Shown: positions 23,194-23,777 of the stretch, piece by piece
Layout of the letters: the number at the start of each line of letters is the position of its first letter
Position numbering within the stretch: position 1 is the stretch's first letter
Source of the DNA: Gammaproteobacteria bacterium
Lineage (GTDB): Bacteria > Pseudomonadota > Gammaproteobacteria > Steroidobacterales > PWYM01
Direction of reading: 5' to 3'
Length of the DNA stretch: 52,663 nt
Assembly: GCA_007693855.1 (NCBI GenBank)
Contig: RECU01000070.1
Location: 1-52,663, forward strand
The notes under the pieces: generated by a model
Told to the model about the DNA's origin: nothing
Databases searched by the model: none
What the model saw: the letters and a program-made list of their open reading frames with translations, nothing else
Position numbers and translations under genes: made by a program

Positions 23194-23404
23194 TCGCGCC
23201 GGCCAGCCTGCTGTTATGCACAAACTGGCGCTCATGCGGAAAATCAGTGCTCAAACGGGCTAGTTTTCATGTGGCAAGTTCGCTTGCTAGCATAACCTGC
23301 TGATTTACTTGATATAACTGCTTTAGGTTAAATTTTCGCCAATTTGATGGATTCGCTGTGGTCACCGGCGTTTGTCCCCCGTTGCCACGTTTCATGCACA
23401 GAGT

Positions 23405-23425
23405 TATCCACAGCTTCTGTGGATA
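23405..23425. repeat. Perfect inverted repeat made of two opposed DnaA boxes
   Basis: TATCCACAG and CTGTGGATA face each other across CTT, giving a perfect 9-bp inverted repeat. Each arm overlaps a DnaA-box match, so DnaA could bind as an opposed pair. Confidence 0.85.
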
Positions 23426-23486
23426 TGTCGACGCGCCGGCAGTCCAGCAAGAACGGTGCGCCAGCAAGTACGTCGCGCGTCTTTGC

Positions 23487-23515
23487 TTGTCAGCGGTCAG
23501 CAGGCTGCCTATACT
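23487..23515 (+). promoter_or_regulatory. Sigma-70 promoter for rpmE
   Basis: TTGTCA (-35) and TATACT (-10), each five of six to consensus, with an ideal 17-base spacer. The predicted transcription start is near 23522, about 50 bases before the rpmE ATG. Confidence 0.7.
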
Positions 23516-23570
23516 GTTCTGCTTGCTTTGGTTCACCGAAGAACTCTTTATTTTGACAGGCGAATTGGTC

Positions 23571-23777
23571 ATGAAAGCCGAGATTCATCCCCAGTACAGC
23601 GAAATCACGGTGTCGTGCAGCTGCGGCAACGTGTTTCAGACCCGCTCGACGCTCGGGCGTGACCTTCAGGTCGAGGTCTGCTCGCAGTGCCATCCTTTCT
23701 ACACCGGCAAGCAGAAGATCGTCGACACCGGTGGCCGGGTCGACAAGTTCCGCCGCAAGTACGGCCTCGCCGGTTGA
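23571..23777 (+). CDS. rpmE: 50S ribosomal protein L31, zinc-ribbon type
   Basis: Encodes 68 aa. The complete Zn ribbon is present (C16, C18, C37, C40: 'SCSCG' and 'CSQC'), so this is the zinc-containing L31 rather than the zinc-independent paralogue. 'MKAEIHP.Y' and the C-terminal '[12 protein letters not shown]' are typical. It is apparently monocistronic, with its own promoter upstream and a hairpin terminator downstream. Confidence 0.98.

What the first reader, a model, noticed from the sequence alone, without database searches (positions are those of the whole stretch)
23194..23570. oriC-like DnaA-box cluster in an AT-rich spacer between hemW and rpmE
The spacer holds two perfect TTATNCACA boxes (23214, 23404) and two one-mismatch boxes (23392, and inverted at 23418), two of them forming a perfect inverted repeat. 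About 90 bases next to them are only about 37% GC in a GC-rich region. Boxes beside an AT-rich stretch are the basic layout of a replication origin. The neighbourhood (spoT, gmk, rph, ponA/pilMNOPQ, cox, rpmE homologues) is origin-proximal in Pseudomonas. However, dnaA, dnaN, rpmH, gidA and parAB are missing, so the site may instead be a DnaA-titrating (datA-like) or reactivation site, or a DnaA-controlled promoter.
Basis: partly seen in the sequence, partly recalled or inferred. Interest (0 to 1): 0.6.

Follow-up and report, generated by a model that had tools for sequence, protein, structure and literature searches.

The report
DnaA-reactivating (DARS-like) site upstream of rpmE
This spacer is not a replication origin: it carries a conserved docking site for the replication initiator DnaA, built to the same base-pair spacing as the E. 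coli "DnaA-reactivating sequences", and it shows that such control sites are widespread in Gammaproteobacteria, often next to rpmE and priA and, where it could be mapped, on both sides of the origin.

Summary
The boxes are real and far beyond chance: the 3.28-Mb genome holds 11 perfect TTATNCACA, two of them here. The site is not oriC: that is the dnaA-dnaN spacer on another contig. Boxes at 23418(-), 23404(+) and 23392(+) reproduce exactly (start offsets 14 and 12) boxes I, II and III of E. coli DARS1 and DARS2. E. coli datA, oriC, mioC, polA, purH and nrdA sites lack the head-to-head box I. Upstream lie an IHF-consensus site (23293), a Fis-consensus site (23326) and a distal box (23214). The same layout recurs at fixed offsets in rpmE copies, priA copies and class-wide copies (z 7-14). 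The genome has a second copy upstream of priA. The core occurs in 97 of 99 genomes of the order (up to 2 mismatches) and, exactly, in 177 of 370 class genomes; the reversed control pattern gave none. In 34 of 80 class genomes it sits upstream of priA, always in one orientation. In three relatives of one genus the two copies flank dnaA at 68-102 kb on each side. Best reading: a DARS2-type element that binds DnaA, IHF and Fis and recycles ADP-DnaA to ATP-DnaA. Geometry and conservation are shown; the biochemical activity is inferred.

The parts
23214..23222 (+). distal DnaA box TTATGCACA, 183 bp upstream of the core-pattern start
   Evidence: perfect match; perfect box at -181 to -187 in most relatives, -196/-197 in three; column identity 0.95 against 0.52 for the middle
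23261..23350 (.). AT-rich middle (37% GC) that holds the IHF- and Fis-like sites
23293..23305 (-). IHF-consensus site AATCAGCAGGTTA (1 mismatch to WATCAANNNNTTR)
   Evidence: best-scoring middle offset (-103/-104) in rpmE, priA and class-wide sets, z 13.1, 7.4 and 14.3
23326..23340 (.). Fis-consensus site GGTTAAATTTTCGCC (1 mismatch to GNNYANNNNNTRNNC)
   Evidence: best-scoring middle offset (-71) in all three sets, z 12.8, 11.3 and 12.0; the priA copy of this genome has a perfect match at the same offset
23392..23400 (+). DnaA box III (TCATGCACA), 3 bp from box II (double DnaA box)
23404..23412 (+). DnaA box II (TTATCCACA)
   Evidence: column identity 0.99
23418..23426 (-). DnaA box I (ATATCCACA), head-to-head with box II across a 5-bp gap
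   Evidence: column identity 0.97; absent from E. coli datA, oriC, mioC, polA, purH and nrdA sites
23487..23515 (+). sigma-70-like promoter for rpmE, TTGTCA-17-TATACT, 60 bp downstream of box I
   Evidence: consensus match only
23571..23777 (+). rpmE, ribosomal protein L31
22015..23193 (+). hemW, radical SAM heme chaperone

Best explanation
The spacer carries a DARS2-type DnaA-reactivating element. Shown by sequence: three DnaA boxes in the DARS core arrangement (I and II head-to-head with a 5-bp gap, III 3 bp behind II), a Fis-like site about 70 bp and an IHF-like site about 100 bp beyond box III, and a distal DnaA box at about 183 bp, all conserved in spacing; a second copy precedes priA. 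Inferred: ADP-DnaA molecules pair head-to-head on boxes I and II, helped by DnaA on box III and by DNA bending through IHF and Fis, and release ADP; the freed DnaA binds ATP and can fire oriC again. Because the copies lie close to the origin in complete relatives, their dosage would double early after initiation.
For: Start offsets of 14 and 12 bp identical to E. coli DARS1 and DARS2. The box-I slot mismatches 4-7 of 8 positions at six other DnaA-bound E. coli sites, while the whole 29-bp core pattern has 0 mismatches here, 1 in DARS1 and 2 in DARS2. Published work says the head-to-head I/II arrangement is characteristic of DARSs and essential (PMC10380432), that IHF and Fis sites are required at DARS2 and their positions matter (PMC4245941), and that double boxes 2 or 3 bp apart are the preferred in vivo DnaA target in E. 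coli (PMC11317965). Conservation: 97 of 99 order genomes and 177 of 370 class genomes, no hit for the reversed pattern in any genome. IHF and Fis offsets recur in three sets. In named relatives 26 box pairs have a 5-bp gap, 2 have 17, no other value from 0 to 40. Distance to the gene varies (21-365 bp in the order) while the internal spacing is nearly fixed. IHF-alpha is encoded.
Against: No biochemical or in vivo data. IHF and Fis assignments are consensus matches with one mismatch each in this copy. Whether this genome encodes Fis or DiaA was not tested. A PF00308 search found DnaA and one other protein, which is IstB and not Hda, so the usual source of ADP-DnaA was not found. The order of Fis and IHF relative to the core differs from E. 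coli DARS2, and the distal box points the other way. The near-constant orientation toward rpmE or priA could also fit a promoter role.
Confidence: 0.75

Rival explanations
1. A DnaA-controlled promoter: DnaA bound upstream of rpmE (and of priA) times transcription of these genes with the replication cycle.
For: The cores sit upstream of rpmE or priA in one orientation in nearly all cases. In this genome the priA copy ends about 24 bp before a likely priA start codon. E. coli DnaA does bind upstream of regulated genes.
Against: Core-to-gene distance varies from 21 to 365 bp in the order while internal spacing hardly moves; the same core stands beside unrelated genes elsewhere; regulatory DnaA sites of E. 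coli lack the head-to-head box; here the rpmE promoter-like site lies 60 bp beyond box I. The two roles are not exclusive.
Confidence: 0.13
2. A datA-like site that titrates DnaA or stimulates hydrolysis of its ATP.
For: DnaA box cluster with an IHF-like site, origin-proximal in relatives as datA is in E. coli (PMC10380432).
Against: E. coli datA mismatches the box-I slot at 4 positions and the core pattern at 5; a Fis-like site and a 5-bp head-to-head pair are DARS features.
Confidence: 0.07
3. An oriC or backup origin.
For: Boxes beside an AT-rich stretch.
Against: dnaA-dnaN spacer with its own boxes on another contig; no skew turn at the spacer; skew minimum close to dnaA in G031; core geometry is DARS-like, not oriC-like.
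Confidence: 0.02
4. A palindromic operator of another DNA-binding protein that merely resembles DnaA boxes.
For: The most visible feature is an inverted repeat.
Against: A third box at 3 bp, a distal box at 183 bp, and IHF- and Fis-like sites are conserved together.
Confidence: 0.03

Closest known systems
E. coli DARS2 (rppH-mutH spacer)
   Same: Boxes I, II, III at start offsets 14 and 12; IHF-consensus and Fis-consensus sites upstream of box III; a DnaA box at about -190 against -183 here
   Different: Different locus. Here the Fis-like site (-71) lies nearer the core than the IHF-like site (-103); in DARS2 the IHF sites (-76/-92) lie nearer and Fis further out. The distal box has the opposite orientation. 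DARS2 is far from oriC; these copies are origin-proximal in complete relatives.
E. coli DARS1 (bioD-uvrB spacer)
   Same: Core geometry, and TTATCCACA as box II
   Different: DARS1 has no IHF-consensus match within one mismatch in the scanned stretch; this element has conserved IHF and Fis positions and a distal box
E. coli datA
   Same: DnaA box cluster with an IHF site near oriC
   Different: No head-to-head box I at 5 bp (4 mismatches in the slot)
E. coli double DnaA boxes (polA, purH, nrdA)
   Same: Two boxes in tandem 3 bp apart, like the III-II pair
   Different: No box I

Membership tests
DARS (DnaA-reactivating sequence) | Three DnaA boxes, I and II head-to-head, III beside II, at the spacing of DARS1 and DARS2 | tested here: met
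   Offsets 14 and 12 identical; 0 mismatches to the core pattern, DARS1 1, DARS2 2, other DnaA sites 5-6
DARS (DnaA-reactivating sequence) | IHF- and Fis-binding sites at constrained positions (DARS2 type) | tested here: met
   Consensus sites at fixed offsets in three sets; consensus matches only, binding not shown; order differs from DARS2
DARS (DnaA-reactivating sequence) | Stimulates ADP release from ADP-DnaA and raises ATP-DnaA | not testable with these tools
   Needs purified DnaA or strains
DARS (DnaA-reactivating sequence) | Occurs where an ADP-DnaA source (Hda) and IHF/Fis are encoded | tested here: inconclusive
   IHF-alpha found; Hda not found with PF00308, the second hit being IstB; Fis not tested
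oriC | Cluster of DnaA boxes with an unwinding element at the skew minimum, usually beside dnaA or dnaN | tested here: not met
   dnaA-dnaN-recF with boxes on contig C62; no skew turn in the window; G031 minimum near dnaA
datA | datA arrangement of DnaA boxes around one IHF site, without a head-to-head DARS core | tested here: not met
   E. coli datA lacks the box-I slot that this element has; ATP hydrolysis not testable
DnaA-regulated promoter | DnaA binding alters transcription of the adjacent gene | not testable with these tools
   Orientation is consistent, distance to the gene is not constrained

The most novel reading that the evidence does not exclude
Paired, origin-flanking DARS elements, one upstream of rpmE and one upstream of priA, with a core-Fis-IHF-distal box order of their own, are an old and general way of recycling DnaA in Gammaproteobacteria; E. 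coli DARS1 and DARS2 would be relocated, rearranged descendants or parallels, and some phages carry the core to tap or disturb the same cycle.
Probability: 0.4. Interest if true: 0.75.

Novelty: new variant of a known kind. Interest (0 to 1): 0.62.

Why it matters
The papers read here describe DARS2 sites mainly in species close to E. coli, at the E. coli location. Finding the same core, with conserved IHF- and Fis-like positions, in about half of sampled class genomes gives a sequence rule (29-bp core, -71, -103, -183) that makes DARS sites predictable from sequence alone and testable in many bacteria. Their near-symmetric position close to the origin in three relatives of one genus contrasts with the DARS sites of E. 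coli, which lie far from oriC, and bears on the open question of how chromosomal position sets initiation timing.

Tried and rejected
oriC: rejected (dnaA-dnaN on C62, skew). That the second PF00308 hit was Hda: rejected, it is IstB. That the rpmE and priA copies are a recent duplication: not supported, outside the shared sites the two spacers align poorly. A host-flank origin for the viral hits: no rpmE, priA, uvrB or mutH neighbour found. E. coli priA-rpmE spacer: no DARS core there. No Rfam family in the window. Paper searches for DARS with priA or rpmE gave no report of such a site; the original 2009 DARS paper is not held, so prior mention of DARS-like sequences in distant species cannot be excluded.

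Full report
Observation. The spacer between hemW and rpmE (23194-23570) holds the four boxes reported. The genome of 3.28 Mb in 114 contigs has only 11 perfect TTATNCACA: three around dnaA on C62, two here, two on C79 and four singles. At that rate two in 377 bp have a chance of about 8e-7. The window is the whole contig C86.

Not an origin. DnaA, DnaN and RecF lie together on C62, with boxes at C62:15588, 15675 and 15710 in the dnaA-dnaN spacer next to an AT-rich stretch. Cumulative skew climbs through the window without a turn at the spacer, and in the complete relative G031 the minimum of the 400 kb examined is at 2,697,404, about 10 kb from dnaA, not at rpmE.

What it is. E. coli DARS1 and DARS2 were read directly. 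Their boxes I, II, III start 14 and 12 bp apart; those of the window do too: I at 23418-, II at 23404+, III at 23392+. Reverse-complemented, the window reads ATATCCACAGAAGCTGTGGATAACTCTGTGCATGA against DARS1 TTATCCACTATTCCTGTGGATAACCATGTGTATTA. The 29-bp core pattern has 0 mismatches here, 1 in DARS1, 2 in DARS2, and 5-6 at the double boxes of datA, oriC, polA, purH and nrdA; the box-I slot mismatches at 4-7 of 8 positions at those sites and at mioC. So the head-to-head box, described as characteristic of DARSs and essential (PMC10380432), separates this element from the other DnaA sites compared.

More than the core is conserved. In 27 aligned elements of the order the boxes have mean column identity 0.87-0.99, the middle 0.52 and the far flank 0.36. 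Scanning for IHF and Fis consensus gave one best middle position each, -103/-104 and -71 from the core-pattern start, in rpmE copies, priA copies and class-wide copies; no other of 133 offsets scored as high and z is 7.4-14.3. Shuffling ignores relatedness within the order, but the class-wide set, drawn from many families, gives the same offsets. A perfect distal box lies at -181 to -187 in most. E. coli DARS2 has the same kinds of part in another order: IHF at -76/-92, Fis further out, DnaA box at -190 reversed.

Distribution. Up to two mismatches: 97 of 99 genomes of the order; exact: 177 of 370 genomes of the class; reversed control pattern: none in any of them. In the order the core precedes rpmE in 31 of 42 and priA in 34 of 59 genomes checked, 15 having both, all in one orientation. 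Class-wide, 34 of 80 genomes have it 56-224 bp before the PriA domain, all in one orientation, and 8 before rpmE. The 80 were chosen because they have an exact core. Others lie beside rsmA, proS, lon, atp genes and more, so the element is not tied to one gene. This genome has both copies: C86 (rpmE) and C79:37728-37756 (priA).

Position. In long contigs of three genomes of one genus, dnaA lies between the two copies: G429 about 69 and 68 kb, G434 about 82 and 85 kb, G031 about 90 and 102 kb. In G046, another family, the rpmE copy is 212 kb from dnaA. Elsewhere in the class the distances are larger and variable. Symmetry may partly reflect the usual inversions about the origin.

Mechanism. By analogy with E. 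coli (PMC10380432, PMC4245941, PMC8682772), ADP-DnaA would pair head-to-head on boxes I and II and lose ADP, with IHF and Fis bending the DNA; the distal box may, like DnaA box V, feed back on Fis binding. In E. coli, moving DARS1 close to oriC raises origin number while DARS2 near oriC does not (PMC5010248); an IHF/Fis-gated element is therefore the kind that tolerates an origin-proximal place. All of this paragraph, as applied to the window, is inference.

Limits. No activity was measured. Fis and DiaA were not looked for and Hda was not found with the one model used. The 2009 DARS paper could not be read; a review says DARS-like sequences occur in many proteobacteria, so the novelty claimed is the architecture, the loci and the scale, not the existence of DARS outside E. 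coli.

Noticed in passing
L233-L295 (IMG/VR contigs): 63 viral contigs carry the exact DARS core and none the reversed pattern; nearly all lack the IHF/Fis/distal-box layout. Neighbours include terminase subunits (L243, L238), a DNA helicase (L251) and a DNA polymerase exonuclease subunit (L263). Some cores lie inside ORFs.
   Followed up: partly
G000 C79:37728-37930 (L038 7728-7930): Second copy of the element upstream of priA, with a perfect Fis consensus and two GATC sites in its AT-rich middle.
   Followed up: yes
G000 C11:3549-3854 (L002): The only PF00308 hit besides DnaA is IstB; no Hda was found in this 100%-complete assembly.
   Followed up: partly
G129 C16:2909-2945, G239 C62:64822-64858, G461 C105:11657-11693: Two overlapping exact cores in opposite orientation, giving a symmetric array of four boxes.
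   Followed up: no
G220, G094: Genomes with many cores (8 at up to 2 mismatches in G220; 5 exact in G094), including a pair about 400 bp apart in G220.
   Followed up: no
L046:1953 (E. coli DARS2 region): A second, weaker core-like arrangement (4 mismatches) about 300 bp from the DARS2 core.
   Followed up: no
G056 C1:1311006 (L167) and sister genomes of family f12: These genomes lack the rpmE and priA copies and have one core with TTTTCCACA; in G056 it stands next to an ATP synthase epsilon gene.
   Followed up: partly
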